Below, piece after piece: positions 8,639 through 39,103 of a stretch of 39,103 bases of DNA. The notes beneath the pieces were generated by a model, which saw only the letters and a program-made list of their open reading frames with translations, had not been told where the DNA came from and ran no database searches. Source of the DNA: Elusimicrobiota bacterium (GTDB lineage Bacteria; Elusimicrobiota; Elusimicrobia; UBA1565); contig JACRDU010000130.1 in assembly GCA_016218495.1 (NCBI GenBank), forward strand, positions 1 to 39,103. The letters are read 5' to 3'. The stretch's first letter is position 1, and every line of letters begins with the position of its first letter. Position numbers and translations under genes: made by a program.

Positions 8639-8644
8639 TAGAAT
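8639..8644 (+). promoter_or_regulatory. -10-like box of the thioesterase gene, leaderless
   Basis: TAGAAT ends exactly 6 bases before the ATG at 8651, so transcription should start at or next to the start codon. TGGACG (8615-8620) lies 18 bases upstream as a possible -35 with 4 of 6 consensus positions; it overlaps the pyk start codon. Confidence 0.6.
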
Positions 8645-8650
8645 GCCCAC

Positions 8651-9106
8651 ATGCCAACCCAGAAGCCCGTTCGCCTCTCCCGGACGATTCTGTCGGACCT
8701 CATGTCCCCCCCCGACGCCAACCTGCACGGGACGGTCTTCGGGGGCAAGGTCCTGGCGATGGTCGACAAGGCGGCGGCGGTGTGCGCGATGCGCCACGCG
8801 GGCTGCCTCTGCGTGACGGTGGCGATGGACCGCGTCGAGTTCCTCGTCCCGATCGAGGTCGGCGACGTCGTCATCGTCGAAGCGCAGGTCAACGGGGTGG
8901 GGCGGACCTCCATGGAGGTCGGCGTGGAGGTCTATGCGGAGCTGCCCGGAGGCGGGGAGCGGCGGCATACGAACTCCTGCCTGGTCACGATGGTGGCGGT
9001 CGACAAGAAGCGCCGCCCGGTGGCGGTGCCGGGCGTCGTCACGGAGACGCCCGACGAAAAACGCCGGGCGAAGGAGGCCGCGGTGCGGCGCGGCGCGCGG
9101 CGCTAG
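8651..9106 (+). CDS. Acyl-CoA thioesterase, hotdog fold (YciA/BFIT type)
   Basis: 151 aa, a single hotdog domain. These cytoplasmic enzymes hydrolyse acyl-CoA to free acid and CoA. The typical segment is PPDANLHGTVFGGKVLAMVD (residues 18-37), matching the NxxGxxxGGxLMxxMD motif. VTVAMDRVEFLVPIEVGDVV and NSCLVTMVAVD follow at the expected positions. The C-terminus (DEKRRAKEAAVRRG) is a short basic tail. It is transcribed divergently from pyk with 35 bases between start codons and is probably leaderless. The next gene starts 15 bases downstream and may be co-transcribed. Chain-length preference cannot be read from the sequence. Confidence 0.92.
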   Translation: MPTQKPVRLSRTILSDLMSPPDANLHGTVFGGKVLAMVDKAAAVCAMRHAGCLCVTVAMDRVEFLVPIEVGDVVIVEAQVNGVGRTSMEVGVEVYAELPGGGERRHTNSCLVTMVAVDKKRRPVAVPGVVTETPDEKRRAKEAAVRRGARR

Positions 9107-9121
9107 GCCATGGGAGGGTTC

Positions 9122-9649
9122 ATGTCCAGATTGAAGACGGCGGCCCTGGCGGTCATGGCGCTGGCCGCGCCGCTGTGCGCGCCTGCTTCGGCGGAGTCCC
9201 CGCCCTGCTTCAGCCACGAGGAGTTCTTCACCATCATCGACAACATGGTCGGCTCGCGGCGGCTGCGGCCCCGGGACGTGAACGCCGTCCTGCCCAAGCC
9301 CGTCAAGTTCGAGCGCGAGCCGGACAACGACTTCTTCCAGATGTACCGGGCCGTCGCGTCCACGGGCTCGTGGCTGACGGCCGTCGACCTGCGGGTGGGC
9401 CGCAAGGACTCGGCGCGCAGCTACCTGGTGTTCGACACCGCCGCCTGCCTCAAGATGGAGGCGAAGATGGTCTTCGAGCGCTACGGCAGCGGCTACAAGA
9501 TCCGCGGCCCGGACCCGTACGACATCAACGAATACTCGGGGTGCTACGAATACCAGGCCGGGAAGATGGGCGAGGCCCAGCTCCGCTTCTGCTTCGGCTC
9601 GGGGCGCAAGCCCCTGCTCGTGCGTGTGACGGTGGACCGGGTGCCTTAG
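9122..9649 (+). CDS. Small secreted protein of unknown function
   Basis: 175 aa. Signal peptide at residues 1-25 (MSRLKTAALAVMALAAPLCA, cleavage near ASA-ES). The mature protein has conserved-looking cysteines (PPCFSHEE, TAACLK, SGCYEY, RFCFGSG), so one or two disulfides are likely in the periplasm. No family recognised. An ATG at 9110 is also in frame, but GGGAGGG lies 3 bases before the ATG at 9122, which decides the start. It sits just downstream of the thioesterase. Its stop overlaps the stop of the convergent dus gene (9646-9649). Confidence 0.8.
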   Translation: MSRLKTAALAVMALAAPLCAPASAESPPCFSHEEFFTIIDNMVGSRRLRPRDVNAVLPKPVKFEREPDNDFFQMYRAVASTGSWLTAVDLRVGRKDSARSYLVFDTAACLKMEAKMVFERYGSGYKIRGPDPYDINEYSGCYEYQAGKMGEAQLRFCFGSGRKPLLVRVTVDRVP

Positions 9650-10638
9650 CCGGCCGCGCCCGCGGGGTCGAAGCCTTCGATGTGGGCGCGAATGGTCGCG
9701 GTGTCCCGGGCGAGGCAGACCTGGTTGCGGAACCGGGCCGAGCCCGGATAGCCCGAGAAGTACCAGGCCGCGATGCGCTTCATGTTGTTGGCGGCGTAGC
9801 GCTCCCCCTCGTAGAGCACCTCGAGGTCGAGGTGGCGCAGCAGGGTCGCCTTCTTCTCCGCGAAATCCGGGACGAAGTCGGGGCTGGACGAACCGGCCAG
9901 CGCGTTGGCGATGTTCCGGTAGAGCCAGGGGTTGCCGAGGGCGCCCCGCCCCAGCATCACGGCGTCGCAGCCGCTCTCGGCGACGAGGCGCTTCGCGTCG
10001 GCGGCGCAGCGCACGTCCCCGTTGCCGATGACCGGAATCCGTACGGCCGCCTTCACCCGGCCGATGGCCGAGTAGTCGGCGTCCCCGGAATACCTCTGCT
10101 CGCGGGTGCGTCCGTGCACGGCGACGGCCTTCACCCCCGCGCCCTCGGCGCGCTTGGCCGCCTCGACGGCCTCCCTGCCGGAGGGGTCGCGGTAGCCGAG
10201 GCGCATCTTGACGGTGACCGGGATGCGCCGGACGGCCCGGACGACGGCTTCGAAGATGGCGCCGGCCTTCTGCGGGTTCTGCAGCAGGGCCGAGCCGGCC
10301 CCGTCGCCCCCCCCCGTCACCTTCGGCACCGGACAGCCCAGGTTCAGGTCCACCAGGTCGAAGCCCATGTCCTCGATGCGGGCGGCCGCCTCGGCCATGA
10401 CGGCCGGGTCGCAGCCAACGAGCTGCGCCCCCAGCGGCCGGTCGGCCTCGGCCGTCTTCATCAGGCCCAGGGTCTTCTTCGAATCCTGCACGAGCGCATG
10501 GGCGGAGACCATCTCGAGATAGGCGAATTCCAGGCCCTTCTCCCGGGCCACGATGCGGAAGGGCAGGTCGGTGCAGGCCGCCATCGGGGACTGGATCACT
10601 CCCGAGGTGAGGCGCAGGGCGCCGAGCTGTAGGGGCAT
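9646..10638 (-). CDS. dusB: tRNA-dihydrouridine synthase (DusB-like)
   Basis: 330 aa. Dus enzymes are FMN proteins that reduce uridines in tRNA with NADPH. The TIM-barrel motifs are present: SPMAACTDLPFR at the N-terminus, DLNLGCPVPKV with the catalytic Cys at residue 102, GAGSALLQNP, KMRLGY, VHGRTREQRYSG, IGNGDV and GRGALGNPWL. The loop after the catalytic Cys (VTGGGDGAGSALL) looks about two residues longer than in familiar DusB proteins. Two ATGs occur in tandem at 10641 and 10638. TATAAT ends 6 bases before the second, which I take as a leaderless start. Assignment to DusB rather than another Dus subgroup is likely but not certain. Confidence 0.93.
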   Translation of the reverse strand: MPLQLGALRLTSGVIQSPMAACTDLPFRIVAREKGLEFAYLEMVSAHALVQDSKKTLGLMKTAEADRPLGAQLVGCDPAVMAEAAARIEDMGFDLVDLNLGCPVPKVTGGGDGAGSALLQNPQKAGAIFEAVVRAVRRIPVTVKMRLGYRDPSGREAVEAAKRAEGAGVKAVAVHGRTREQRYSGDADYSAIGRVKAAVRIPVIGNGDVRCAADAKRLVAESGCDAVMLGRGALGNPWLYRNIANALAGSSSPDFVPDFAEKKATLLRHLDLEVLYEGERYAANNMKRIAAWYFSGYPGSARFRNQVCLARDTATIRAHIEGFDPAGAAG

Positions 10639-10644
10639 CATCGA

Positions 10645-10650
10645 ATTATA
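10645..10650 (-). promoter_or_regulatory. Consensus -10 TATAAT of dus, leaderless
   Basis: TATAAT on the minus strand ends 3 bases before one ATG and 6 bases before the next. A start site 7 bases downstream of the box falls on the second ATG. Its -35 region (about 10668-10673) abuts the pilT-like promoter on the other strand. Confidence 0.7.
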
Positions 10651-10661
10651 CCAGTCCGGCC

Positions 10662-10690
10662 TTGAAAATCCGACGACGAAGGGGTAGGCT
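10662..10690 (+). promoter_or_regulatory. Promoter of the pilT-like operon, leaderless
   Basis: TTGAAA (10662-10667, 5 of 6 positions of the -35 consensus), a 17-base spacer, then TAGGCT (10685-10690), which ends exactly 6 bases before the ATG at 10697. There is no Shine-Dalgarno sequence. Spacing and hexamers make this one of the best-supported promoters in the window. Confidence 0.7.
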
Positions 10691-10696
10691 TAGGGC

Positions 10697-11749
10697 ATGT
10701 CCGACACCGAGCTCCTGGCACTCCTCTCCGACACCATCAACCGCGGCGCCTCAGACCTGCACCTCATCCACGGCTATCCTCCCATCCAGCGCGTGGCCAA
10801 CGAGGTCGTCCCGATGCCCCGTCCGCCGCTGGACTCCTCGACCATATGGGCTCTGGTCAAGCCCTATCTCGAGCAGCACCACGAGGAGCTCTTCAAGAAG
10901 GAGCTCAGGGTCAACGTCTCCTTCACCATCCCCAACGTCGGCCGCTTCCGCATGAACCTGGCCCGGGCCCAAGGGACGGTCAGCGCTTCCATCCGCTCGA
11001 TTCCCAGCCGCATCTATCCCCTTTCGGCGCTGGGGCTCCCCCCCATCGTCGGAACGCTCACCCAGAAGCGCCGCGGCATCGTGTTCATCACTGGGCCCAC
11101 CGGCTCGGGTAAATCCACGACGATGGCGGCGATGCTCGACCACATCAACCGCGAGGGCTGGCCGGGGAAGATCGTCACCATCGAGGACCCCATCGAGACG
11201 CTCTTCGTGCCCGCGAAGTCCTTCTTCCTCCAGCGCGAGGTCGGAGTCGACACGCCTTCCTTCGAGATGGGCATCGAGGACGCCCTGCGCCAGGACCCCG
11301 ACGTGGTCTGCATCGGGGAGCTGCGGACCACCGAGTCCATCCGCGCCGCGATCACCGCCGCCGAGACGGGCCACCTCGTGCTCACGACCCTGCACACCCC
11401 CGACGCCGCGAAGACCGCCCAGCGCGTCATCTCGATGTTCCCGGGCAACGAGCAGGACACCATCCGCGACCAGCTCTCCAACACCTTGGAGGCCGTCATC
11501 TCCCAGGACCTGCTGCCGCGCGCGGACAAGCGCGGCCTGGTGCTGGCCATCGAGGTCATGCTGGCCACGTCGGCCGCCCGGCAGCTGCTGCGCAAGGGCG
11601 ACATCCAGCAGCTCTACGACATCCTGCACACCGGGACGAGCCAGGGGATGATCTCGAAGGACGCCTCGCTCAAATCGCTCTTCCAGCGCCAGGTGATCAG
11701 CCGCGAGGTGGCGATAGCGAACATGCGCGACCCGCGGCTCCTATCGTGA
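10697..11749 (+). CDS. pilT: PilT-like type IV pilus retraction ATPase
   Basis: 350 aa, the usual PilT length. PilT hexamers sit at the cytoplasmic base of type IV pili and power retraction. The N-terminal half has the PAS-like RGASDLHL start of the family. Walker A is GPTGSGKST (about residues 133-141). The Asp box is IVTIEDPIETLF, with QREVGVDT after it. Walker B is DPDVVCIGELRTTESI, followed by the His-box segment AAETGHLVLTTLHTPDAAKT. Classical PilT has GEMRDLETI where this protein has GELRTTESI, so it may be a divergent paralogue. No other pilus gene is in the window. First gene of a five-gene operon; its stop overlaps the next GTG start (GTGA). Confidence 0.88.
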   Translation: MSDTELLALLSDTINRGASDLHLIHGYPPIQRVANEVVPMPRPPLDSSTIWALVKPYLEQHHEELFKKELRVNVSFTIPNVGRFRMNLARAQGTVSASIRSIPSRIYPLSALGLPPIVGTLTQKRRGIVFITGPTGSGKSTTMAAMLDHINREGWPGKIVTIEDPIETLFVPAKSFFLQREVGVDTPSFEMGIEDALRQDPDVVCIGELRTTESIRAAITAAETGHLVLTTLHTPDAAKTAQRVISMFPGNEQDTIRDQLSNTLEAVISQDLLPRADKRGLVLAIEVMLATSAARQLLRKGDIQQLYDILHTGTSQGMISKDASLKSLFQRQVISREVAIANMRDPRLLS

Positions 11750-15429: not shown

Positions 15430-16500
15430 CTACCTAGGGACGACGCGCCAGGACACGCCGGGGGGCGGCGCCGCGTCGAGCGGGAACCCCGCGTCGACGG
15501 CGTCCGAGGGGAGCGGGCTGAACCTGCCGAGGATGGCCGAGAACCGGCCGCCCCGCGCGTCGACATAGAGGGATTCCGTCCAGCGCGCGTCGTCGAGCCC
15601 TCCCTCGTCGGGCAGGGAGAACCTCACGAGGAAGACGCCGTCCAGGGGGCGTCCCGCGCCGTCTACGATCCACCCGCGCCATTCGCGCGTCCGGGAGGCG
15701 GAGACCTCCCGCGGGGCGGGGCCGTTGAATTCGACTACGATCTCGGACCCGTTGCGCTCGATGCTGTAGGGCGCCTGGCGGGAGAGGTCGAGGACCACGC
15801 GGGAGACCGGGTTCTGTCCGGTCTTGAACGGAGCCGAGCGCACGGCGCGCAGCACCCCGCCGGGGCGCGGCGCGGGGGCGGCGGCGGCCGCGTGGAAGGT
15901 GCCGGGGAAATCGATGACGAGGCGCGGGGGGTCCTCGGCGAGGAAGACGGCGGGTTCGACGGGGCGGTCCAGGCTGATGACGGCGCGGTCGGGCTCGGAG
16001 CGCACCGCGAGCAGGCTGGCGAACGGGCTGCGGGGAGCGGGCATGCGCAGCACGGGCACGGAGAGCGGCATGGCGAGCGGGGAGAGCGCGTCGCGCATGT
16101 CGGCGGCCTCGGGTTCATGGGGCGGCGGCGCGGGCACGGCGGCGCGCCCGCGGGGAGGGGTGAAATCCACGACCACCGCGCCCGCGGCCTCCCTGGCCGT
16201 CCCTTCCATCGGGGCGGCGAGGTCGAATACCACGCGCAGCACGGAGGGGTCTTCTCCCCAGGGCGCGGCGCGCATGCGGAGGATGGCGCCGGTCCCGGCC
16301 CAGGTCCGCTCGGGGATGGCGATGGCGGTCGCTTCCAGGTCCACCACGAAGCGGTCGGGGTCCCCCAGGCGGAAGGCGCGGAAGCGCGCCGGGGCATCCA
16401 GAGCCAGCCGGCCGCCCGCCGCACCGACGGAGACTCCTGTCAGGTTCGCCGCGCCGGCGACGGGGACGACCGTCAGGAACGCCGCTAGAAGGCAGTTCAT
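15430..16500 (-). CDS. Periplasmic protein with two AMIN-like domains and a shared C-terminal beta domain
   Basis: 356 aa. Signal peptide at 1-18 (MNCLLAAFLTVVPVAGAA). The first AMIN-like unit lies at about 20-115 (RFVVDLEATAI ... VLRVVFDLAAP ... AVVVDF) and the second at about 165-260 (RAVISLDRPVEPAVFLAEDPPRLVIDFPG ... VSRVVLDLSRQAPYSIERNG). AMIN domains bind peptidoglycan and occur in amidases and in type IV pilus/secretin proteins. Residues about 270-356 are a different domain (GWIVDGAGRPLDGVFLVRF ... WTESLYVDARGGRFSAILG). It recurs near the N-terminus of the LysM protein at 18422-19144. TAATAT ends 6 bases before the ATG. Assignment of AMIN domains is by pattern. The specific cell-wall role is unknown. 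Confidence 0.82.
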   Translation of the reverse strand: MNCLLAAFLTVVPVAGAANLTGVSVGAAGGRLALDAPARFRAFRLGDPDRFVVDLEATAIAIPERTWAGTGAILRMRAAPWGEDPSVLRVVFDLAAPMEGTAREAAGAVVVDFTPPRGRAAVPAPPPHEPEAADMRDALSPLAMPLSVPVLRMPAPRSPFASLLAVRSEPDRAVISLDRPVEPAVFLAEDPPRLVIDFPGTFHAAAAAPAPRPGGVLRAVRSAPFKTGQNPVSRVVLDLSRQAPYSIERNGSEIVVEFNGPAPREVSASRTREWRGWIVDGAGRPLDGVFLVRFSLPDEGGLDDARWTESLYVDARGGRFSAILGRFSPLPSDAVDAGFPLDAAPPPGVSWRVVPR

Positions 16501-16618: not shown

Positions 16619-18391
16619 TCAGAACTGGATTTTGAGGCCGACGCCGGTGCGCGTGTCGGAGTAGTTGAACTGGTCGGCGAACAGGGAGTAGCGCTGCAGG
16701 AGCTGGAAGTTGACGTCGGTGGAGAGCCAAGGGCGGACCTTATACTCGACGCGGGCGCCGTAGCTGTAGAGGTCGTCGCGACGGTTGCCGGAGACGGTGC
16801 CCGCCGTCGTCGATGTGGGATAGCGGTCGGTCTCGAAGGAGGCGTCGCCCGACAAGGCCAGCTTGCGCCAGCTGTGCGCGAGGCCCAGGGAGAGGCCGGT
16901 CGCCACATAATGACGGTTCCCCGCGAAGGTGGTCTCGTTGACGGAGCGGAAGAGCCGGGTGCGGGCGTCGGTCCGGCGCGCGGCCTTGATGCGCAGGTCC
17001 ACCGCGGTCAGCAGGTTCGTGGCCGTGGTCGGGCTCCCCGCGGGCGGATTTTCATAGCGGCGGCGCTGGACGTCGGCTTGGATGCGTCCGCTCACGCGGG
17101 GGCCGAGCACGCCCTCCAGCCCGAGGCCGAAGCGGTCGGAGTGGGAGTGGTCGCGGCGTCCCGCGGAGTAGTGGACGATCTCGCGCGCATAGGCTAGGAA
17201 CGTCTTGGTCTTGGGCGCCAGCTTGATTCCCGCCTCGCCTCCGAATGACGCCTCGTAGCGGTTCAGCGAGGAGGCCATCGTGGGGTCGAGGTACTTGTGC
17301 AGCGCGTGCCTGGCGGCGACGCGGAAGACGAACCGCCGGCTGCGTTCGAAGTCGAGGGCGAAGGAGGATTCCAGCATCGTGCGGCGCTGGCGGGCCACCA
17401 GCTCCGAGAAGGCGGGGTCCTCGGTGTTGAGATAGCTCTCGGAGAGGGTCAGCCCCCCCCCGCGCTGGCCGCGCAGGTCGTAGCCGACCTTTATGTCCTG
17501 GTCGACGGCGTTGTTGGTCTTGGGCTGGTTGGAATAGTTGGTGGCCTTCGCGGAATAGAGGCCGCGCAGCTCGCTGCGCTTGCTCAGAGGGAGCTTCCAC
17601 CCTGTCCCCAGCTCGTTGGTCGTGATCCAGGAGCCAAGGACGCCGCCTCCGGTCCGCCGGCCGTCGGGCTTGTCGGGCGGGACGAGGTAGATGTTCGAAT
17701 CGTAGGTCTGGGAGAGGCGGTAGAAGGGATGCAGCTCCAGCACCAGGCGAAGCTCCGGGCGCCCGACGCGGGAGAGCTTGGAGACCCCGGCGGCCAGCGC
17801 GGCAAGCGGGTCCCACTCGGGCTCGGCCGCGACGGGGGGCAGGGGGGCGGGCGCAGGCTGGGGCGTCTGCGCCGCCGGGGCCGAAGGCACGGAAGGCGGC
17901 GGAGGGGAGGCCGGCGCCGGCGCTTGATCGGGCGCGGCCGGGGCGGCGGGGGACGGAGGCGCGACGGGAGCCGCCGCCCCGGGCAGCAGGCCGGCCTGAG
18001 GACCCGTCAAGGCCAGGAAGCGGCCGCTCTCGACCAGGATCGGGGCCTGTCCCGGTGCGGCCACCTCGACGGCCCCGGCGTTCACGAGCAGCCGGACCTG
18101 TCCGTCCACGGCGGCGGTGGTGAAGTCGTCGCCGGCATCGACCCGGATCAAAGTGTCCGAGACCAGCAGAGTCGCGGCGCCCTGGGCGACCGCCGCGCGG
18201 GCCCCGACCGGCACTTCGTAGGCGGCCGCCCCGGGTTCGAGGGCCATGGCCTTGCCGTCGATGCGAAGCCACAGGTAGTCCCCGAAGGCGACGACGGCCA
18301 GCCCCGCCGGGGGCTGGGCGGAGGCCGGGCACGGGGCGGAGGCCAACAGGAGGGCGGCCGCTACTCCGGCGTTTCTAAATTTCCCGTTCAT
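16619..18391 (-). CDS. Outer-membrane beta-barrel with FecR-like N-terminal domain
   Basis: 590 aa. Signal peptide at about 1-25 (MNGKFRNAGVAAALLLASAP, cleavage after ASA). Residues 26-115 resemble a FecR-type small beta domain (VPVGARAAVAQGAATLLVSD ... VRLLVNAGAVEVAAPGQ). Residues about 118-195 are a Pro/Ala linker. From about 210 to 590 alternating aromatic/hydrophobic strands with charged turns form a beta-barrel of the BBP2/capsule-porin kind (YDSNIYLVPP, LRGLYSAKATNYSNQPKTNN), ending in KIQF, a typical BAM-recognised terminal Phe. It should sit in the outer membrane. An ATG at 18403 overlaps the TACAAT box and would extend the N-terminus by four residues, so the ATG at 18391 is used. Last gene of the kinase cluster, 30 bases after the LysM gene. 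Substrate unknown. Confidence 0.85.
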   Translation of the reverse strand: MNGKFRNAGVAAALLLASAPCPASAQPPAGLAVVAFGDYLWLRIDGKAMALEPGAAAYEVPVGARAAVAQGAATLLVSDTLIRVDAGDDFTTAAVDGQVRLLVNAGAVEVAAPGQAPILVESGRFLALTGPQAGLLPGAAAPVAPPSPAAPAAPDQAPAPASPPPPSVPSAPAAQTPQPAPAPLPPVAAEPEWDPLAALAAGVSKLSRVGRPELRLVLELHPFYRLSQTYDSNIYLVPPDKPDGRRTGGGVLGSWITTNELGTGWKLPLSKRSELRGLYSAKATNYSNQPKTNNAVDQDIKVGYDLRGQRGGGLTLSESYLNTEDPAFSELVARQRRTMLESSFALDFERSRRFVFRVAARHALHKYLDPTMASSLNRYEASFGGEAGIKLAPKTKTFLAYAREIVHYSAGRRDHSHSDRFGLGLEGVLGPRVSGRIQADVQRRRYENPPAGSPTTATNLLTAVDLRIKAARRTDARTRLFRSVNETTFAGNRHYVATGLSLGLAHSWRKLALSGDASFETDRYPTSTTAGTVSGNRRDDLYSYGARVEYKVRPWLSTDVNFQLLQRYSLFADQFNYSDTRTGVGLKIQF

Positions 18392-18401
18392 CGAAGGTGG
18401 C

Positions 18402-18407
18402 ATTGTA
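18402..18407 (-). promoter_or_regulatory. -10-like box TACAAT before the FecR/barrel gene
   Basis: TACAAT on the minus strand ends 10 bases before the ATG at 18391, giving a leader of only a few bases. It overlaps a false upstream ATG at 18403. It could serve as an internal promoter that lets the outer-membrane protein be made independently of the upstream kinase genes. Confidence 0.5.
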
Positions 18408-28098: not shown

Positions 28099-28119
28099 AA
28101 ATCCCCTGGAAAGGGGTTT
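28099..28119 (-). terminator. Weak hairpin at the end of the small kinase gene
   Basis: On the minus strand AAACCCCT-TTCC-AGGGG(A)TTT forms an 8-bp stem with one bulged A and a 4-base loop, starting within the stop codon. It is followed by few U residues, so it is at most a partial terminator or an mRNA end-stabilising structure. Confidence 0.35.
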
Positions 28120-28804
28120 ATAAGGGAAGGCGGACCACGGCCGTGGTCCCGTTTCCGGGGGCGCTGGCTAGCTCCAGGGCTCCTCCGCTGTCCTCAAGGA
28201 GGCGGCGGGTCAGATAGAGCCCCAAGCCGGTGCCGTTCGGCTTGCTCGTGAAGAACGCCGTCCCGGCCTTGGCCAAAGTGTCCCCGTCCATGCCGGCGCC
28301 GCTGTCGGAGATGGTGGCCTTCGCCTCCGTCCGGGAGGTCTCCACCCGAACCCTCAGCGTGCCGCCGCGCGGCATCGCCTCCAAGGCGTTGACGAGGAGG
28401 TTGTGCAGCGCCGTTTCCAGGGCCCGTTCGTCGCCGGCCGGAGCGGCGCGGCAGGAGAGTTCGGCCTCGAGGCGCACCCCGTGCGACACGAGCATCTTGT
28501 CGAGGAGCCTGAGCTGGCGCTCCAAGAGGCGCGAAAGGTCGCAGGGGCCCAGCCCGGACGCGGGCGCCGCCGCGAAGTCCAGCAGGGCCTGCGCGGCCTG
28601 AGCGGCCTGGCGTGCGTTGCGCAAGATGGTTTCGAGCCCGTCCTTGAGCTCTCCGGCGGGTTCCATGTGGGAGAGGGCCAGCTCGGCGGTGGAGGAGATG
28701 ACGTGGAGCGGACCCCTGATGTCGTGGGCGAATGAGCCCGCCGCGCGGCCGACGGCGCTCAGGCGTTCCAACCGCGCCAGGGCCTCCTTCGTCGGAGCAT
28801 CCAC
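28118..28804 (-). CDS. Small soluble histidine kinase without sensor domain
   Basis: 228 aa. It consists only of the kinase core. The H-box is GSFAHDIRGPLHVISSTAEL with phospho-accepting His27. The N-box is LHNLLVNALEAMP, G1 ISDSGAGM, F-box TAFFTSKP and G2 GTGLGLYLTRRL. There is no membrane segment or sensor domain, so it acts in the cytoplasm and must receive its signal through a partner. The core is similar in order and motifs to that of the giant kinase just downstream, which suggests a paralogue pair that could form heterodimers. The start is GTG 28804, because TGC-TATACT ends exactly 6 bases upstream. A frame reaching upstream through an ATG in the palindrome is rejected because it would place the promoter inside the gene. 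Confidence 0.88.
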   Translation of the reverse strand: MDAPTKEALARLERLSAVGRAAGSFAHDIRGPLHVISSTAELALSHMEPAGELKDGLETILRNARQAAQAAQALLDFAAAPASGLGPCDLSRLLERQLRLLDKMLVSHGVRLEAELSCRAAPAGDERALETALHNLLVNALEAMPRGGTLRVRVETSRTEAKATISDSGAGMDGDTLAKAGTAFFTSKPNGTGLGLYLTRRLLEDSGGALELASAPGNGTTAVVRLPL

Positions 28805-28810
28805 GCGCCG

Positions 28811-28819
28811 AGTATAGCA
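28811..28819 (-). promoter_or_regulatory. Extended -10 promoter of the small kinase, leaderless
   Basis: On the minus strand TGC-TATACT (28819 to 28811) is followed by exactly 6 bases and GTG. The TGn motif is the extended -10 element. The expected -35 region lies inside the 28828-28898 palindrome, so a protein bound there could control this promoter. Confidence 0.65.
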
Positions 28820-31155: not shown

Positions 31156-31161
31156 AATAAT
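31156..31161 (+). promoter_or_regulatory. -10-like box AATAAT before the giant exported protein, leaderless
   Basis: AATAAT ends exactly 6 bases before the ATG at 31168. TGGCGG (31133-31138) lies 17 bases upstream as a weak -35. The spacer 31104-31155 also holds TTAGGAC and ATAGGAC copies (31100-31106 and 31140-31146). Confidence 0.5.
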
Positions 31162-31167
31162 CTGGGC

Positions 31168-34100
31168 ATGAGGCGGACCGAAAGGCCTATCCTCGCCGAG
31201 CGCCTCGCGCTGGCCGCTATCCTTATTGTAGGCGGCTCCCTGCCCCCCGTCGCCTTCGGCCGGACCGCATCCTATAGCGTCCGCGCGGCCGACGCCGACA
31301 TCGCCCTGACGGCCGCTGAGGAGATGGAAATCCTCCTTTCCGGCCTCCAGGAGCAGTTCGCCGCGCAGCGCCAGGAGCTCGACGCCGCCCCTCTGGTCCC
31401 CCTCTCCGCCCCCACCGCCGAACAGAAGCGCAAGATCGCCGCAGCGCACGTGCCCGAGTTCAAGAAGCTGGGCGTCCTCGGATCGCTGGGCGCCCTGCGC
31501 GAACGCTTCTCCGCGCTGCGCCGCCGCGTCGACGCCGAAGACCTGCCGGCGGAGAAGAAGGCGGCGCTGGCCGGCCGCCTCGACAAGCTCGTCGAAATCG
31601 TCGAGCGCCTGAAGGCGGCCGAAGGGAAGACCCCCGGCTCGGTCCCCCCCGCGGCCTTGGCCCGCCTCGCCGAGGCCGCCCGCACGACGGCCCCGGCCGG
31701 CTCGCTCAAGCCCCTGGAGGAGTTCTCCAAGGACGTGGCCAGCGGCCGGCAGGCCCCGCAGGCCGCGCTGGCGCAGCTCTTCGAGAACGGCCGCCTAGCG
31801 GGCAGCGACATCGCCGCCGAGCCCGTCATGGCCGACGCCCCGTCCGGGGGCGCCCAGTCCCTCGTCAACGCCGCTCCGGCGACCGTGCGCATCGACGGCC
31901 AGGTGCCGGACCTCCCCGCCGCGCTGGAGCCCGCGCCGGCCCGGGCCGCGGCCTCCGACGGGCCCAGCGTCTGGGACCGGCTCTCCCAGACCTTCGGCGC
32001 CGCCGTGTCCCCCTTCGAGAAGCTCACGCCCCAGGGGCGCCAGGAGGCCTTCGAGAAGGACCGCGCCGCCTTGCGCAAGGAGCTGCACTCCCTGGCCGTG
32101 CAGGCCTTGGCCGAAGGAGGCGTGGACGCCGCCGGCTTCAAGGACCTCGACAAGGCCGATACCCGCCTGAGCGCGCTGCGCGGCGAGACCCTGCGGGGGC
32201 TGGGCTTCGACAAGCCCGCGGCCGACGCGGCGGGGGCGAAGAAACAGCGCGACGCGCTGACCACGAAGTCCCCCGCGCTGTCGCTCTATATCGCCAAGCG
32301 CGGCCTCTACCAGGACTACGTCAACGAGGCCCTGCACCAGAAGGCCCTCAAGCCCGGGATGCGGCTGCAGCCCTGGGAGGTCGGAGTGGACGGCGGCGCG
32401 GAGACGGCCGTGGCCTACGCCTCCCGAAAGGATGGCGACCGGGAGTTCTGGGGCATCCTGCGCGAGTTCAACGACGGCAGCACGCGCTTCGAGGCCGCCG
32501 AAGGGAACACCACCCTCATCGTGGTGAAGAGCCCCAAAGACCACCGCGAGGTCCGGACCACCGGCGAGTTCGACGATAAGGGGGTCCAGAAGCTGGCCCG
32601 GGCCTCGGTCATCGACACGCGCACCAGCCGCCGCATCAGCGAGGAGCTCACCGACTTCGCCAAGAAGCTGATGGTGCGCACGGACTTCGGGGACGACGGG
32701 ACGCCCGTGCGGGTCACCACGGTGGACGGCGCCGCGCGCCGCCAGAAGGTGGAGGAGCGCGAAGGGACCAAGGTCGTGCGCACCCTGGCGCTCGACGAGG
32801 CCACCGGGCGGCGGACCATCGAAGACCAGAAGGCCCGCACGCGCACGGTCATCGAGAAGGACGGGAAGACCACCGTCACCTCGCTCGACGGCGGCGGCGA
32901 GCAGCGCGGCCGGGTCGGCGAGGACGGGGCCTTCACCCTCGAATCCGTGGTCCAGCGCGACGGCAGCGTGATCGAGTTCGTCGGGAATCGCGTGGCCCGC
33001 GTCAAGAAGGACGGCAAGGTCCAGGTCTACGAGGTGGACTTGAGCCGCCTCACCGGCGGCCTCAAAGGCAAGGCCCGAGAGGACGAGTCCTACGCCGTCG
33101 CGCGCGACATCGTGAAGGCCCTGGGCTGGGACGACAAGGACGGCAACCGTTCGCGCCCCATCCATAACTGGCTCTTCGACACCTGGGACCCGGGGGACCG
33201 CATCGCCTCGGTGTCGCTCAGCATCGCCCCCGACGGCAGCTTCCAGAAGGTCTACCGCAACAAAGACGGCACCATGCGCGTGGAGCGCGCCAACTTCATG
33301 CAGTCGACGAGCTACGGCGGCCGCTCGGAGTGGGCGCTGGTCATGACCCGCCCCATCCAGACCGACCGCGAGGGCCGCGGCGCGGTCGACCCGCGGCGCT
33401 GGCGCGAGTACCTGGCCTCCGGCGGCTACAACCAGTGGCACTCGATGTTCGGCATGGAGGACTCCGGCTGGTTCTCCAACGCCAAGTCCATCGAGACCGT
33501 CTCCCTGCAGCGCTACGGGTGGAAGGGGACGGTGGACGCCGGCGGCTGGTCGAGCAACGGGACCGAACAGAAGGAGCGCATCGTAAACGAGGTGGCGGGC
33601 ACCTCCACCTTCGGCATCATCGGCACCGCCATCCACGAGACCCCGGTCGTGGGCCATGTGCTCAAGTTCGGGGAAGGCACCGCCTCGAGCATCTGGGGCT
33701 CGCTGCAGGCCGCCCCGCAGACCATCGTCTACGCCATCAGCGGCGACGGGCGCTACGGCGCCTCCGCCGCCGCGAACTGGAGCAAGGTCGCCCCGATGAA
33801 CTGGGCGGTGGGCGGCACCGACGGCCAGCTGGACCGGCTCAACAAGGACGCCCTGCAGTACGTGGTCGACGAGGCGTCCGAACGGCGCGTCGCCGGCCTG
33901 CGCCAGGCCGGCTATACCCAGGAGAACACCTCGGCCAGGGAGTGGTCGAAGCTGACCAACCGCTGGGACGGCCAGGGCAAGTTCGCCTCCGAGGCCGACT
34001 GCACCGCCAAGTACCAGGCCTGGTACTGCGAGCGCTTCCGCTACAGCACCGACGAGCTTTCCGGCTCGCTGACCCGGTTCACGATGTCCGGGACGGCGGA

Positions 34101-36876
34101 CCGCATCATCGACAACGCCCAGCAGAAGGAGGGCTTCGCGCGCTACGCCCAGAGCACCGGGGGCTATGCCCTGAAGATCTTCGACAACGTCGGCGAGACG
34201 ATGTTCAACCCGGTCATCTGGGCGACCTGGGGCGCCGGGGCCGGCGTCGGCGTGGCGGCCAAGGGCGGCTCCCTGTTCGGCATGGGGGCGGCCGGCACCG
34301 CCCGCGCGGCCACGGCGCTGAGCTATGTCCACCGCGCCGGCACCGTGCTCCTCTACGGGACCTGGACCGTGGGCGGCATCGACAACCTGGGCCAGACCGT
34401 GGTGGCCATCCAGGAGGGCGATTCGGCGAAGGCCTGGAAGAAGGGCGCGGACCTGTCCACCGACCTCTTCTTCCTCGGCATGATGGCCTATGAGGGGCGC
34501 AGTGCCAAGGCCCGCGAGACGGCTCAGGTGGCCCGTGCCCGCGAGCGCGCCGCCCTGGTCGAGCAGGTGACGGCTGCGGAGGGGGTCCTCAAGGCCCGTA
34601 ATGCGGTGGTGGACGGTCCCCAAGGGCGCGCCGCCAAGCCGGCCGCCATCCTCGGGCCCGACGGCAAGCCGGTGCGCGGCGAGGCCGCCCCCGCCCAGAG
34701 CGCCGCTCTGCTAGGGCCGGACGGCAAGCCGGTGCGCGGCGAAGCCGCCCCGCTGGAGCGCGCCGGGCTGCTCGGACCGGACGGCAAGCCCCTGGCCGTG
34801 GAGGCCGCCCCGGCGCAGAGCCTCTCCTTGCTCGGGCCCGACGGACGGCCGCTGTTCGAGAGCCCCGCGCCGCGCAGCGTCTCCCTGGTCGACGCCGGAG
34901 GCAGGCCCCTGCTCGGCCCCGAGGCCGTCCTGCGCGGCGAGGGCGCGGCGTCCGCCCTGCTCGAGGGCGCCGCGGCCGTCCCTCCGGCCGGACCCGCGAA
35001 GGCCTCCTTCGGGGTGCGGATGCTGTCGGCCCTGCCGGGCGGCGAAGGCCTGATGCGCTACTTCGACGGCGGCAAGACAAACGCCCAGCTCGCCGACGCT
35101 ATGCTGCGCGAGCGGGCCGCCGCCAAAGACGGGCCGGGTCGGGACACGGCGGGGCGGGAAGCCATCGAGAAGGAGGCCCTCAGACGGGGCGTGGACCCCG
35201 AGGCCCTGCGCACGCAGGTCATCAACGAGGTCTTGAAGCCGCAGGACGCCGTCTCCAAGCTGAGCGAGGCGCGTGCCGAGGAGGCGCGCCTGGCGGCGGA
35301 GGCCGAAGCCGCGGCGCGGGCCGCCGAAGCCCGGGAGAAGGCCGCGCTCGAGCTGCGCGACGCCGCGCCGGCGGATGCCCGCTCCCTGACGACGCGCCTC
35401 CTCGAAGGCGGGCGCGACGTGATGCGCGACATGTGGAGCCGCTACGTCAACGGCGAGGCCGCCAGGGCCCGGGAGAAGGCGGGGCCCGAGAAGACCGAGG
35501 GCGAGCGCGGTTCGGAGCCCAAGGCCAAGGAAGACCCGGTCCGCGACCGCGGCGAGCGCAACGGCGTGCGCGAGGAGACCGCCGCCGAGAAGACCGAGCG
35601 CCTGGCGCGCGAGAAGGCCGAGGCCGACCGCCTCGCCAAAGAGCAGGCCGACCTCAGGACCAAGGAAGCCCGCGACCGTGCGGAGCGCGAGGCCAAAGAG
35701 GCGCGCGACAAGGCGGAGCGCGAGGCGAAAGAGGCTCGGGAGAAGGCCGAAGAAGCCCGCAAGGCGGCCGAAGAGGCGAAGCGGCGCCGGATGGAAGAGG
35801 AAGCCAAGGCCAAGGAGCGCCTCAGCGAAGACGAGCTCCGCCGCCGGCTGGCCGAGGAGCAGCGCGTCCGCGGGAAGGACCCGACCAAGCGCTGGGACCA
35901 TGAAGGCAACCCCGTCACGAATCCCCGGGTCGAACCCGACCCCGAATTGGCCAAGGTGGACCCCAAGGTCGACCCGGAGCCGACCGGTCCGCAGCCGCAG
36001 CGCCAGCCCGATCCCGAGCGGACGGCGGGACCCCAGCAGCAGTCCGGCGAGTCTCCGGCGGCCAGCCAGTCGGGTTCTCCTGCCGCGCAGGGGCCGGCCG
36101 GCGGCCCGTCCGGAGGCCCGTCGGGCGGGCCTTCAGGCGGCCCCTCCGGCGGCGGCGGCGAGGGCGGTGGTGGAGGCGGTGGAGGAGGAGGCGGCGGGGG
36201 AGGAGGCGGTGGCGGCGGGGGCGGTGGAGGAGGCGCGGGCGGAGGGCCGGGAGGCGGCGACAGCGGCGGCGCCGGCAATCCGTTCGACGGCACGAAGGCG
36301 GCGCCCACTCAGGAGAAGCTGCTGGCCTTCGCGGCGAAGCCGATGCCCGCCCTGATGCAGGTCGGCGCGGAGAGCATGCCCGGCCATGTCGCCCCTTATG
36401 ACCCGTACCGCAAGGCCGCCGCGGAAGCCATGAAGGGCTCGACGGCCGGCTCGGCGTCCCTGGCCCCCGCGGCCGAGACCGCCCGCGTGACGCCGTCATT
36501 CGCGCAGAGCGGAGGCTCGGCCAGCGGGGCCATCCCGGAGATGTGGCCGTTCGCCCCCCGCAACCCGTATCCGGACGGGAAGAAGGAGCGCATCGTGGAA
36601 TCGGCCGGCGCGACGGCCCCGACCTTCGCTCCGACCGCTCAGGCCCCGGCGCCGGCGGCGAAGCCCGCCGCCGATGAGGAGCCCTACGAGGTCCCGACGC
36701 ACACGCTGCGCCAGGCGAACCACCTCTACGACGGCCACCTCCCCAAGGAGGAGAAGCCGGCCGAGGACAATAGCGCCCTGCCGCTGCTGGCGCAGATCCT
36801 CGGGTTGGGCGCCGTCATCTACCTCTGGAAGTTCTCCCAGCTGCCGTTCGTCCTCGGGCTGCGCCGCCGCCCGTAG
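31168..36876 (+). CDS. Giant exported multidomain protein of unknown function
   Basis: 1,902 aa. N-terminal signal peptide or anchor at about 10-31 (LAERLALAAILIVGGSLPPV). Residues 40-420 are mostly helical. About 420-640 has repeated short beta hairpins built on D/E-G-K/T turns (DFGDDGTPVRVTTVDG, VIEKDGKTTVTSLDG), loosely YD/RHS-like. About 690-1110 is a possibly globular or membrane-interacting region with WGAGAGVGVAAKGGSLFGMG. About 1161-1239 are four 20-residue repeats. About 1430-1570 is a charged coiled coil (AEREAKEARDKAEREAKEAR). About 1640-1705 is Gly/Pro-Ser then polyglycine. The C-terminus has one hydrophobic helix followed by RRRP. It should be secreted and anchored or displayed at the surface. 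I do not recognise it as a whole. It could be an adhesin, toxin carrier or scaffold. Confidence 0.85.
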   Translation: MRRTERPILAERLALAAILIVGGSLPPVAFGRTASYSVRAADADIALTAAEEMEILLSGLQEQFAAQRQELDAAPLVPLSAPTAEQKRKIAAAHVPEFKKLGVLGSLGALRERFSALRRRVDAEDLPAEKKAALAGRLDKLVEIVERLKAAEGKTPGSVPPAALARLAEAARTTAPAGSLKPLEEFSKDVASGRQAPQAALAQLFENGRLAGSDIAAEPVMADAPSGGAQSLVNAAPATVRIDGQVPDLPAALEPAPARAAASDGPSVWDRLSQTFGAAVSPFEKLTPQGRQEAFEKDRAALRKELHSLAVQALAEGGVDAAGFKDLDKADTRLSALRGETLRGLGFDKPAADAAGAKKQRDALTTKSPALSLYIAKRGLYQDYVNEALHQKALKPGMRLQPWEVGVDGGAETAVAYASRKDGDREFWGILREFNDGSTRFEAAEGNTTLIVVKSPKDHREVRTTGEFDDKGVQKLARASVIDTRTSRRISEELTDFAKKLMVRTDFGDDGTPVRVTTVDGAARRQKVEEREGTKVVRTLALDEATGRRTIEDQKARTRTVIEKDGKTTVTSLDGGGEQRGRVGEDGAFTLESVVQRDGSVIEFVGNRVARVKKDGKVQVYEVDLSRLTGGLKGKAREDESYAVARDIVKALGWDDKDGNRSRPIHNWLFDTWDPGDRIASVSLSIAPDGSFQKVYRNKDGTMRVERANFMQSTSYGGRSEWALVMTRPIQTDREGRGAVDPRRWREYLASGGYNQWHSMFGMEDSGWFSNAKSIETVSLQRYGWKGTVDAGGWSSNGTEQKERIVNEVAGTSTFGIIGTAIHETPVVGHVLKFGEGTASSIWGSLQAAPQTIVYAISGDGRYGASAAANWSKVAPMNWAVGGTDGQLDRLNKDALQYVVDEASERRVAGLRQAGYTQENTSAREWSKLTNRWDGQGKFASEADCTAKYQAWYCERFRYSTDELSGSLTRFTMSGTADRIIDNAQQKEGFARYAQSTGGYALKIFDNVGETMFNPVIWATWGAGAGVGVAAKGGSLFGMGAAGTARAATALSYVHRAGTVLLYGTWTVGGIDNLGQTVVAIQEGDSAKAWKKGADLSTDLFFLGMMAYEGRSAKARETAQVARARERAALVEQVTAAEGVLKARNAVVDGPQGRAAKPAAILGPDGKPVRGEAAPAQSAALLGPDGKPVRGEAAPLERAGLLGPDGKPLAVEAAPAQSLSLLGPDGRPLFESPAPRSVSLVDAGGRPLLGPEAVLRGEGAASALLEGAAAVPPAGPAKASFGVRMLSALPGGEGLMRYFDGGKTNAQLADAMLRERAAAKDGPGRDTAGREAIEKEALRRGVDPEALRTQVINEVLKPQDAVSKLSEARAEEARLAAEAEAAARAAEAREKAALELRDAAPADARSLTTRLLEGGRDVMRDMWSRYVNGEAARAREKAGPEKTEGERGSEPKAKEDPVRDRGERNGVREETAAEKTERLAREKAEADRLAKEQADLRTKEARDRAEREAKEARDKAEREAKEAREKAEEARKAAEEAKRRRMEEEAKAKERLSEDELRRRLAEEQRVRGKDPTKRWDHEGNPVTNPRVEPDPELAKVDPKVDPEPTGPQPQRQPDPERTAGPQQQSGESPAASQSGSPAAQGPAGGPSGGPSGGPSGGPSGGGGEGGGGGGGGGGGGGGGGGGGGGGGGAGGGPGGGDSGGAGNPFDGTKAAPTQEKLLAFAAKPMPALMQVGAESMPGHVAPYDPYRKAAAEAMKGSTAGSASLAPAAETARVTPSFAQSGGSASGAIPEMWPFAPRNPYPDGKKERIVESAGATAPTFAPTAQAPAPAAKPAADEEPYEVPTHTLRQANHLYDGHLPKEEKPAEDNSALPLLAQILGLGAVIYLWKFSQLPFVLGLRRRP
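34648..34884 (+). repeat. Tandem 60-bp coding repeat (LGPDGKP units)
   Basis: Four consecutive units of 20, 20, 20 and 19 codons each start (I/L)LGPDG(K/R)P and end in an acidic/Ala-Pro stretch (GEAAPAQSAA, GEAAPLERAG, VEAAPAQSLS, ESPAPRSVS), followed by a decayed fifth (LVDAGGRPLLGPE). The first two share long identical DNA (GACGGCAAGCCGGTGCGCGG), so copy number may still change. Confidence 0.9.
36100..36279 (+). repeat. GGPS repeats followed by a polyglycine tract
   Basis: Four GGPS units are followed by a run of well over 20 glycines broken only by single Glu and Ala, then GPGGGDSGGAG. The DNA is a GGC/GGT/GGA low-complexity tract prone to slippage and assembly error. In the protein it makes a very flexible spacer between the coiled coil and the C-terminal anchor. 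Confidence 0.9.
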
Positions 36877-36912
36877 CCCGCCCCCGCCGTGGCGTGAATG
36901 CGGAAGTTATAT

Positions 36913-36918
36913 TACACT
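36913..36918 (+). promoter_or_regulatory. -10-like box TACACT, leaderless GTG
   Basis: TACACT ends exactly 6 bases before GTG 36925. An overlapping alternative TATATT (36908-36913) would place the start site about 4 bases before the GTG. No clear -35 is seen in the short spacer after the giant gene. Confidence 0.5.
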
Positions 36919-36924
36919 TCCGGA

Positions 36925-37797
36925 GTGAAGTGCCCGAACTGCATGTTCGATGTCCAAGCGGGCACCGAGAATTGCCCGTTCTGCAACTTCGTCATCCCCC
37001 CTCCCCCCGCCTCCGCCGACGACCCCGTAGCGGTCGATGAGCACGGCGTGCCGGTGGAGCCGGCGGCCGCGGTGCCGGTGCCCGACCCGGAATCGATGAT
37101 TCTCGAAGGGACTCTGCCGTCGGCCCCCCCGCCTACCTCCTGCGAAGAGCCGGCGCCCGCTCCCGCGCCCGCCGCGGCCGGCGGCGGGGCGGTGAAGTTC
37201 GTCGTTATCGCGGCCGCGGCATTCCTCGCCTTCAAGCTGGGGCTGCTCGACAACCTCCTGATGCTGGTCGGGCTGGCCTCGCCGCCACACGCGCCGCCCG
37301 CGGCCGTCGCCCCGCCCGCGCAGCCGGCGGCGCGCCAAGAGCCGGCTTCTCCGCCCGCTTACGAGCCGTTGTCGTCGGGCCCCGGAGGCCCCATCGCTCC
37401 GGCCGGGGGCAAGCCGGAGGCCGAGAAGCCCGCGCCGGCCGTGCAATGGACCTTCGAGGGCACCGTGTACGACATGCTGTCGTTCCGTCCCGTCAAAGGC
37501 GTCGTCCTCCTCTTCATGACGCAGAGCGAGGAGGAGACCTTCGAGTCCAGGACCGATGCGCGGGGGCGCTTCAGGATCGTCCTACCCCCGCGCGGCGAGG
37601 GCTACAAGCTCGTCGCAGACCACCCCGAATACATCGGGGAGTACTTCGATGAGACGGCTCCGCCCATCAAGAGCTGGAGCCTGTCCAAGCGCCGGCAGAT
37701 GCGCGCGGCCAAGCCCTCACACCTGCCGTGGGCGGCCAAGGACGCGGCTCCCGTGCGGCGGGACTTCGTCCTCTTCCCCGACATCACGGACCAATAG
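36925..37797 (+). CDS. Zinc-ribbon / single TM / carboxypeptidase-regulatory-like domain protein
   Basis: 290 aa. Residues 1-22 form a four-Cys zinc ribbon (CPNC at 3-6, CPFC at about 18-21). An acidic/Pro linker leads to one transmembrane helix (about 90-118, VKFVVIAAAAFLAFKLGLL and DNLLMLVGLA). A second Pro/Ala linker follows. Residues about 172-285 resemble a carboxypeptidase-regulatory-like beta sandwich (FEGTVYDMLSFRPVKGVVLLF ... ESRTDARGRFRIVLPPRGEGY). The ribbon would be cytoplasmic and the beta domain periplasmic. GTG 36925 is chosen over an ATG at 36898, because TACACT ends 6 bases before it and because the ribbon then starts at the N-terminus as usual. It lies 48 bases after the giant exported protein. 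Function unknown. Confidence 0.82.
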   Translation: MKCPNCMFDVQAGTENCPFCNFVIPPPPASADDPVAVDEHGVPVEPAAAVPVPDPESMILEGTLPSAPPPTSCEEPAPAPAPAAAGGGAVKFVVIAAAAFLAFKLGLLDNLLMLVGLASPPHAPPAAVAPPAQPAARQEPASPPAYEPLSSGPGGPIAPAGGKPEAEKPAPAVQWTFEGTVYDMLSFRPVKGVVLLFMTQSEEETFESRTDARGRFRIVLPPRGEGYKLVADHPEYIGEYFDETAPPIKSWSLSKRRQMRAAKPSHLPWAAKDAAPVRRDFVLFPDITDQ

Positions 37798-37806
37798 AGG
37801 GCCCGT

Positions 37807-38832
37807 TCAAGGTCTTAAGTTACCGAGCCAGGATTGCAGGCGCTCGGCCAGCCCCGGACCGCGCCAGGCGGCGCGGACCTTCTCCAACAGCGGATAGAGG
37901 ACGTCGCCGGGGCAGTCGGTCTGCCCGCGGTCGCGGTGCCCCTTGTAGGTCTCCGGCCCGGCGCCGTAGGACGCCTGCAGCCAGCGGCCGAGCCGGACGG
38001 AGGCGTCGAGCTGTTCGGGAGCGACGGGATGGTTGAAGGGCGGATGGTGGCTGCCCATGAAGCAGATGCCGACGTTGCCGGAATTGTCGTTCTTGACGTG
38101 CGCCCCGACGACGTCCACGGGGCGGCCCTGGAAAATCCGTCCTTGGGAATCCACGAGGAAGTGGTAGCCGATGTCGTTCCAGCCGCGGCCGTTCTGGTGG
38201 AAGTCCTGCAGGAAGCGCATCTCGGCCAAGGACTCTTCGAGCGTGGACGGCCGGCGCCCCTGGGTGTGGTGCTGGGTGACCCGGTCGGGCTTGTGCGGGG
38301 AGAACGGCTCTTTGGGGGGACGGGCGCCCCAGCCGTCGCGGGCGATGAAGGCCGGCGGCTCCGCGGGGGCCGCCGCGGGACGCGGGCCGGGCCGGGAGGC
38401 CTCCTGCGCGCCGGACATGAAGACCTGCATGGAGTAGAGGGTCAGCGGGGACGAAGCCGCCGGGCCGGAGCCGAGGGCGCGGACCATGAGCGCGCCCGTC
38501 CCGGCGCCGTCGAAGCGGACCTTGGCCCAGAACCTGCCGTCCGCGCCCCGATGCAGGTCCGCCTTGCGCCACGCCGACCAGCCGGCCGGCTCTTGTCGCG
38601 CGGCTTCGAAGCCGACGCCCGCCGCCGGGGCTTCCCCCTGGAAGATGACGGAGTCGTAGGGCGCGGGGAAGGGGTCCGAAGGGCCCAGCTCGAGCAGGGC
38701 CGTGCCCGCTCCGGACGGCCTCACCAGGGTATACACGCCGGCGGCCGGGGTTCCCCCGAGCGTGACGGCAGGGTCCCCCTCTTGGGCGGCGGCCGGAAGG
38801 ACGGCGAGGGCCAGCAGGAGCGCCGACAGCAT
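37807..38832 (-). CDS. Secreted PGRP / amidase_2 N-acetylmuramoyl-L-alanine amidase
   Basis: 341 aa. Signal peptide at 1-17 (MLSALLLALAVLPAAAQ). Residues about 20-150 are an N-terminal beta domain I do not recognise. The amidase core runs from FIARDGWGARPPKEPF (a typical PGRP opening) through TQHHTQG (first zinc His), GWNDIGYHFLVDSQGRIFQGRP, GNVGICFMG, and GHRDRGQTDCPGDVLY, which supplies the second His and the Cys. The zinc ligand set is complete, so it should cleave the amide between muramic acid and L-Ala in peptidoglycan. Tandem ATGs occur at 38835 and 38832; TATAAT ends 6 bases before the second. It ends convergently 9 bases from the zinc-ribbon gene. Confidence 0.9.
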   Translation of the reverse strand: MLSALLLALAVLPAAAQEGDPAVTLGGTPAAGVYTLVRPSGAGTALLELGPSDPFPAPYDSVIFQGEAPAAGVGFEAARQEPAGWSAWRKADLHRGADGRFWAKVRFDGAGTGALMVRALGSGPAASSPLTLYSMQVFMSGAQEASRPGPRPAAAPAEPPAFIARDGWGARPPKEPFSPHKPDRVTQHHTQGRRPSTLEESLAEMRFLQDFHQNGRGWNDIGYHFLVDSQGRIFQGRPVDVVGAHVKNDNSGNVGICFMGSHHPPFNHPVAPEQLDASVRLGRWLQASYGAGPETYKGHRDRGQTDCPGDVLYPLLEKVRAAWRGPGLAERLQSWLGNLRP

Positions 38833-38838
38833 CATCCG

Positions 38839-38844
38839 ATTATA
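38839..38844 (-). promoter_or_regulatory. Consensus -10 TATAAT of the amidase gene, leaderless
   Basis: TATAAT on the minus strand is followed by three bases and ATGATG, the same arrangement as at dus (10645-10650). The second ATG begins 6 bases after the box. No strong -35 is seen. Confidence 0.65.
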
Positions 38845-38890
38845 TCCCATCGGCCGCTGGATGGCGCGCCTATCTTGGGCCGAAGGGCCC

Positions 38891-38919
38891 ATAACAGGCC
38901 GCTCCGACTAGGCTACAAT
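38891..38919 (+). promoter_or_regulatory. Promoter of the last, cut gene, leaderless
   Basis: ATAACA (38891-38896, 4 of 6 consensus positions), a 17-base spacer and TACAAT (38914-38919) ending exactly 6 bases before the ATG at 38926. Confidence 0.65.
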
Positions 38920-38925
38920 AGGCGG

Positions 38926-39103
38926 ATGCGCGGCCTCCGGCTCCCCCTTGCGGCCCTTTTGACCCTAACGGCGACGCCTCTGCCGGCCCAGGTCGCGGTG
39001 GGCCGCGCGGTCTTGGCCCCGCTGGCCGCGCCGGGACCGGTGCTGATTCCGGGGTCCGCGGCCCGCCCCAGCGTCGTCTCGCCGGGGGCGCTCTTTACCC
39101 CCA
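38926..39103 (+). CDS. Partial CDS: exported Ala/Pro-rich protein
   Basis: Only the first 59 codons are in the window. Residues 1-22 form a signal peptide (MRGLRLPLAALLTLTATPLP, then AQ). The following residues are Ala/Pro/Val/Ser-rich (GPVLIPGSAARPSVVSPG) and resemble the region just after the signal peptide in the MFS protein at 2376 (PILIQPGSSFKPSLSS). The body may therefore be a membrane enzyme or transporter behind such an extension; it cannot be identified from this fragment. Confidence 0.75.
   Translation, partial: MRGLRLPLAALLTLTATPLPAQVAVGRAVLAPLAAPGPVLIPGSAARPSVVSPGALFTP

What the first reader, a model, noticed from the sequence alone, without database searches (positions are those of the whole stretch)
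8639..38926. Leaderless-mRNA signature: -10 box, exactly 6 bases, start codon
Seen: TAGAAT-N6-ATG (8651), TATAAT-N6-ATG (10638), TAGGCT-N6-ATG (10697), TAATAT-N6-ATG (16500), TATACT-N6-GTG (28804), AATAAT-N6-ATG (31168), TACACT-N6-GTG (36925), TATAAT-N6-ATG (38832) and TACAAT-N6-ATG (38926). Further boxes lie at 7-10 bases (2241, 5180, 8615, 18391, 28955). Known: transcription starts about 7 bases after the -10 hexamer, so the start codon would be the 5' end. Genes inside operons here instead have Shine-Dalgarno motifs or overlaps. Inference: leaderless translation is the default for first genes in this organism.
Basis: partly seen in the sequence, partly recalled or inferred. Interest (0 to 1): 0.75.

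Follow-up and report, generated by a model that had tools for sequence, protein, structure and literature searches.

The report
Leaderless genes in Elusimicrobia bacteria
In this uncultured Elusimicrobia bacterium, and across most of its class, many genes have the promoter's -10 box exactly six bases before the start codon, so their messages probably begin at the start codon with no leader; this mode is known from Deinococcus and Actinobacteria, and I found no earlier report of it for this group.

Summary
All nine listed hexamer-N6-start sites are present, and the signal is genome-wide. In 1 Mb of the same genome, with starts called without any upstream motif, TANNNT ends exactly 6 bases before the start of 39 of 186 divergent first genes (about 1.9 expected per position). 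It lies 5-8 bases away in 74 of 186, against 16 of 355 operon-internal genes (P=1e-24), which have Shine-Dalgarno motifs instead. The box is a promoter -10 element: extended TGn, and TTGAC at a 17-base spacer. Five box-led starts in the window are conserved in a relative 59-89% identical in protein. The organism is an Elusimicrobiota MAG. TATAAT-N6-ATG exceeds TATAAT-N14-ATG in 56/56 genomes of its order and 45/46 of its class (ratio 2.85), but not in other classes of the phylum (0.89; 53 genomes). Best explanation: leaderless transcription and translation as in Deinococcus-Thermus and Actinobacteria. 'Default for first genes' is too strong: about 36% after background by strict box, perhaps 45% with relaxed boxes. 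No RNA 5' ends were available. A new occurrence of a known kind; no report for this phylum was found in the papers searched. Extra: divergent start codons can be only 22-35 bp apart, with facing -10 boxes.

The parts
8639..8653 (+). TAGAAT-N6-ATG before the thioesterase gene (8651-9106); TAGAAT-N6-ATG conserved in L005
8613..8629 (-). TAGAAT-N8-ATG before the divergent pyruvate kinase gene (7155-8615); the two start codons are 35 bp apart with facing -10 boxes; arrangement conserved in L005
10636..10650 (-). TATAAT-N6-ATG before the dihydrouridine synthase gene (9646-10638); TATACT-N6-ATG in L005, TATAAT-N8-ATG in G088
10685..10699 (+). TAGGCT-N6-ATG before the T2SSE-type ATPase gene (10697-11749); TAGGCT-N6 conserved in L005
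16498..16512 (-). TAATAT-N6-ATG before the AMIN-domain gene (15430-16500)
28802..28816 (-). TATACT-N6-GTG before a histidine kinase gene (28118-28804), with TG one base upstream (TGC-TATACT)
31156..31170 (+). AATAAT-N6-ATG before the 1902-aa ORF (31168-36876); weak box, not TANNNT
36913..36927 (+). TACACT-N6-GTG at 36925; in frame with the ORF whose start the caller put at 36943
38830..38844 (-). TATAAT-N6-ATG before the Amidase_2 gene (37807-38832)
38914..38928 (+). TACAAT-N6-ATG; open frame runs off the contig end
5167..5182 (+). TAGAAT-N7-ATG at 5180; TAGAAT-N6-ATG in L005, with the start one codon later
2239..2255 (-). TAGAAT-N8-ATG at 2241, divergent from 2376
2363..2378 (+).
18389..18407 (-). 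TACAAT-N10-ATG at 18391, before the beta-barrel porin gene; would leave a leader of about 4 bases

Best explanation
The boxes are -10 elements of ordinary housekeeping-sigma promoters placed so that transcription, which normally starts about 7 bases after the -10 hexamer, begins at or within 1-2 bases of the start codon. The first genes of many transcription units therefore make leaderless mRNAs that begin with AUG or GUG and are translated without a Shine-Dalgarno contact, while downstream operon genes keep Shine-Dalgarno motifs or overlaps. Shown from sequence: presence and position of the boxes, their promoter character, their restriction to unit-leading genes, their conservation in a close relative, and their spread through the class. 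Inferred: the actual RNA 5' ends and leaderless translation.
For: Positional peak in divergent first genes at spacings 5,6,7,8 = 11,39,17,9 against about 1.9 per position; internal genes 16/355 at 5-8. The peak survives leaving out the window and needs no gene calls. Promoter character: consensus TGnTAtAAT, TG one base before the box in 30/121, TTG at exactly a 17-base spacer in 18/121 and TTGAC in 8. Internal genes instead show SD 4-mers at 39% against 12% background. Method controls: E. coli 4/46 with no peak; Deinococcus deserti plasmid 6/32, Thermus pTT27 2/10. Conservation: five of five box-led starts in the syntenic block keep their box in L005, while no box is seen at the six starts without one in the window. 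Relatives pooled: 32/215 at spacing 6 against 4.9. TATAAT-N6-ATG against TATAAT-N14-ATG: own genome 32 vs 1; order 1406 vs 315, 56/56 genomes; class 2108 vs 739, other classes 2426 vs 2713.
Against: No transcript 5' ends were available. More than half of first genes lack a strict box and their mode is unresolved. A box 8-10 bases away would leave a leader of a few bases. The own genome's 16S is cut before its 3' end, so its anti-SD was not read here. In relatives outside the closest one, orthologues often lack the box (17 of 23 box-led own genes with an orthologue, though some of those comparisons suffer from start calls), so the mode seems to switch gene by gene.
Confidence: 0.93

Rival explanations
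1. The A/T-rich hexamer is a translation signal (unstructured or S1-binding sequence before the start codon) on leadered mRNAs, not a promoter element.
For: Nakagawa 2017 (PMC5397173) notes that A/T bias near -10 could reflect S1 binding; the region before starts is otherwise G+C-rich.
Against: The signal has TAnnnT form at a fixed distance, with an extended TGn and a TTGAC element at exactly 17 bases, and is nearly absent from operon-internal genes, which are also translated.
Confidence: 0.03
2. Short-leader variant: the boxes are promoters, but transcription typically starts far enough from the start codon that most mRNAs keep a leader of 3-10 bases.
For: Boxes at 8-10 bases exist (2241, 8615, 18391), and Dus genes in G071 and G094 have TATAAT 12 bases before ATG.
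Against: The mode is sharply at 6, matching a start at the 7th base; spacings over 9 are much rarer.
Confidence: 0.04
3. Chance or start-calling artefact in a promoter-rich sequence.
Against: Poisson P about 5e-37 at spacing 6; the caller-free scan and control spacings show the same peak; conserved in a relative.
Confidence: 0.001

Closest known systems
Deinococcus-Thermus '-10 motif adjacent to ORFs' (Zhong et al. 2025, PMC12340547; Zheng et al. 2011, PMC3160421)
   Same: TANNNT mostly 6-7 bases before the start codon beside a GGAG ribosome-binding motif in other genes; roughly a third of genes there; shown by reporters and RNA-seq to act as a promoter for leaderless mRNA.
   Different: Different phylum; here about 15% of all starts by strict box, an extended TGn element is visible, and there is no RNA evidence yet.
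Actinobacterial leaderless genes (Zheng et al. 2011, PMC3160421)
   Same: TAnnnT signal about 10-12 bases upstream in about 20% of genes; high G+C genomes.
   Different: Unrelated phylum; in the present class the signal also occurs in genomes of medium G+C.
Bidirectional bacterial promoters (PMC10268837)
   Same: Near-symmetric -10 elements facing opposite ways in a short interval.
   Different: There, divergent start sites are most often 18 bp apart and sharing one -10 region; here each gene has its own box at the leaderless distance and start codons are 22-61 bp or more apart.

Membership tests
Bacterial leaderless genes (TA-led, sigma-70 type) | TANNNT hexamer peaking about 6-7 bases before the start codon, genome-wide | tested here: met
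Bacterial leaderless genes (TA-led, sigma-70 type) | Confined to genes that lead a transcription unit; distal operon genes SD-led | tested here: met
   74/186 divergent against 16/355 internal; SD 4-mers 15% against 39%
Bacterial leaderless genes (TA-led, sigma-70 type) | The hexamer is a promoter element (with -35 or extended -10) | tested here: met
   TGn and TTGAC at 17 bases; transcription itself not measured
Bacterial leaderless genes (TA-led, sigma-70 type) | mRNA 5' end at the start codon | not testable with these tools
   no RNA data for this genome
Bacterial leaderless genes (TA-led, sigma-70 type) | 5'-terminal AUG translated without SD | not testable with these tools
   needs toeprinting or ribosome profiling
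Organisms with SD-independent ribosomes (lost anti-SD) | anti-SD absent from 16S rRNA | not tested
   16S truncated in this assembly; class Elusimicrobia is listed with anti-SD CCUCCUUU in PMC10783764, and internal genes here carry GGAG

The most novel reading that the evidence does not exclude
Leaderless expression is an ancestral, class-wide trait of Elusimicrobia that splits the phylum Elusimicrobiota (present in this class, absent from the other classes sampled), and it has allowed divergent gene pairs to shrink to about 25 bp between start codons, with two facing -10 boxes and each -35 inside the neighbour's coding sequence.
Probability: 0.6. Interest if true: 0.6.

Novelty: new member of a known kind. 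Interest (0 to 1): 0.5.

Why it matters
Leaderless translation is thought to be an old mode kept in a few bacterial phyla. A clean split inside one phylum gives a natural comparison for how it is gained or lost and for what changes in ribosome or sigma factor go with it. It also matters in practice: start codons in Elusimicrobiota genomes should be called with a leaderless model, since tools that expect a Shine-Dalgarno motif may shift starts, and -10 boxes before starts locate promoters directly in uncultured genomes.

Tried and rejected
A three-part motif mixture absorbs background into the motifs and gives only a rough estimate. Re-choosing starts for box-less divergent genes found a box at 15 of 112, against 5-7 at control spacings, so start errors explain only a small part of the box-less genes. 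Orthologue comparison with distant relatives was underpowered (82 pairs). Fold prediction and RNA-family scans were not relevant and not used.

Full report
WHERE THE WINDOW COMES FROM. The window is contig 101 of a 4.15-Mb, 165-contig assembly of about 70% G+C. The best named relative of its dihydrouridine synthase is 'Elusimicrobia bacterium NC_groundwater_827' (75% identity, locus L005). The whole genomes offered as its order, class and phylum fit Elusimicrobiota. One complete genome of order UBA1565 of that phylum has 68.6% G+C and 3.8 Mb (PMC9476967), and a one-contig 3.8-Mb genome lies in the window's order (G121).

THE OBSERVATION. All nine hexamer-N6-start strings are there. Six of the eight starts with a strict TANNNT box, and also 31168, were chosen by a gene caller I wrote (dicodon scores and start-codon type, no upstream signal); one of the other two (38926) runs off the contig. 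On 39 E. coli genes this caller gives the annotated start in 33.

GENOME-WIDE TEST. On 997 kb with 777 usable starts, genes were split by neighbourhood. For 186 starts whose upstream neighbour points the other way (certain first genes), TANNNT ends 5, 6, 7 and 8 bases before the start in 11, 39, 17 and 9 cases, against a mean of 1.9 per position further upstream (Poisson P about 5e-37 at 6). At 5-8 bases 74/186 have it, against 16/355 genes within 25 bases of a co-directional upstream gene (Fisher P 1e-24). The latter show GGAG-type motifs (39% against 12% background), while divergent first genes do not exceed background in the same window (15% against 13%), although a small SD excess at 4-5 bases is visible. 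Leaving the window out changes nothing (35/178). A scan without gene calls gives TANNNT-N6-ATG 109 and N7 76, against about 30 at most other spacings. By strict box, the excess over background is 36% of divergent first genes and 15% of all starts. A motif mixture that allows weaker boxes puts about 47% of divergent first genes at spacing 5-8 before subtracting a few per cent of background.

WHAT THE BOX IS. Aligned on the box, the upstream sequence reads TTGAC - 17 bases - TAtAAT with TG one base before the hexamer. TTG occurs at a spacer of exactly 17 in 18 of 121, and at 0-4 for every other spacer length. These are the -35 and extended -10 elements of a housekeeping-sigma promoter. With transcription starting about 7 bases after the hexamer (general knowledge), the start codon is the 5' end. 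The spread of spacings, 6 > 7 > 5 > 8, resembles the known spread of start-site choice (recalled, not tested).

CONSERVATION. In L005, a syntenic block covers 11 window genes. All five box-led starts keep the box there: TAGAAT at 5180, 8615 and 8651, TATACT for TATAAT at 10638, and TAGGCT at 10697, although the bases between box and start mostly differ; no box appears at the other six. The Dus start keeps TATAAT at N8 in G088 of the same family and at N12 in two members of the order. Further away, orthologues often lack the box, so the mode seems to change gene by gene.

SPREAD. Counting TATAAT-N6-ATG against TATAAT-N14-ATG in whole genomes: own genome 32 against 1; order 1406 against 315, higher in 56 of 56 genomes; class 2108 against 739, higher in 45 of 46; the other classes of the phylum 2426 against 2713, never twofold (0 of 53, against 41 of 46 in the class). 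The exception inside the class is G053 (f6). Direct reading of ten relatives gives 32 of 215 divergent first genes at spacing 6 against 4.9 expected. So the trait belongs to the class, not just to this organism, and high G+C is not its cause: class members of 45-55% G+C show it too.

COMPARISON WITH WHAT IS KNOWN. Zheng et al. 2011 found TANNNT-led genes concentrated in Actinobacteria (about 20%) and Deinococcus-Thermus (about 40%) and listed other phyla, Elusimicrobia not among those named; 8 of 20 genomes under 'Other Bacteria' were positive, so a member could be hidden there. Zhong et al. 2025 showed by reporters and RNA-seq that the -10 motif 6-7 bases before ORFs is a promoter for leaderless mRNA in Deinococcus-Thermus. 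In the library searched, only two papers hold both 'leaderless' and 'Elusimicrobi'; the relevant one lists only the class's anti-SD. The mechanism is therefore known; the occurrence is new to the extent of this library. Subscription papers and gene-finder tables were not searchable.

DIVERGENT PAIRS. Of 93 divergent pairs, 11 have 22-40 bp between start codons and 15 carry a box at 5-8 on both sides, as expected if the two sides are independent. Example: CAT-GTCGAG-ACTCTA-G-TATACT-CGCCCC-ATG (L060). The window has two such pairs, 8615/8651 (35 bp) and 10638/10697 (58 bp). With leaderless promoters the whole control region of two genes can be that short, each -35 lying in the neighbour's coding sequence. 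Facing -10 elements are known as bidirectional promoters; their joint use at leaderless distance was not found described, but was searched for only briefly.

LIMITS. No RNA data; gene starts are predictions; the 3' end of 16S was not recovered; other classes rest on pattern counts; the class and order names are inferred.

Noticed in passing
8616-8650 and 10639-10696; also L060 14080-14104, L044 4849-4871, L061 13699-13733: Divergent genes with start codons only 22-60 bp apart and facing -10 boxes at leaderless distance; the 35-bp pair at 8615/8651 is conserved in L005.
   Followed up: partly
20362-27936 (-): A 2524-aa protein whose only Pfam match is a histidine-kinase ATPase domain at its very C-terminus; AT skew over 22-28 kb is strongly negative (-0.34 to -0.37).
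   Followed up: no
31168-36876 (+): A 1902-aa protein with no Pfam match; its start is preceded by the weak AATAAT box.
   Followed up: no
G053 (family f6 of the class; L175-L179): The one class member sampled without an N6 excess (19 against 26 at N14; 37% G+C): a possible loss of leaderless expression.
   Followed up: partly
10638 and 38832: Both TATAAT boxes are followed by ATGATG, the first ATG at N3 and the second at N6; which one is used is open.
   Followed up: no
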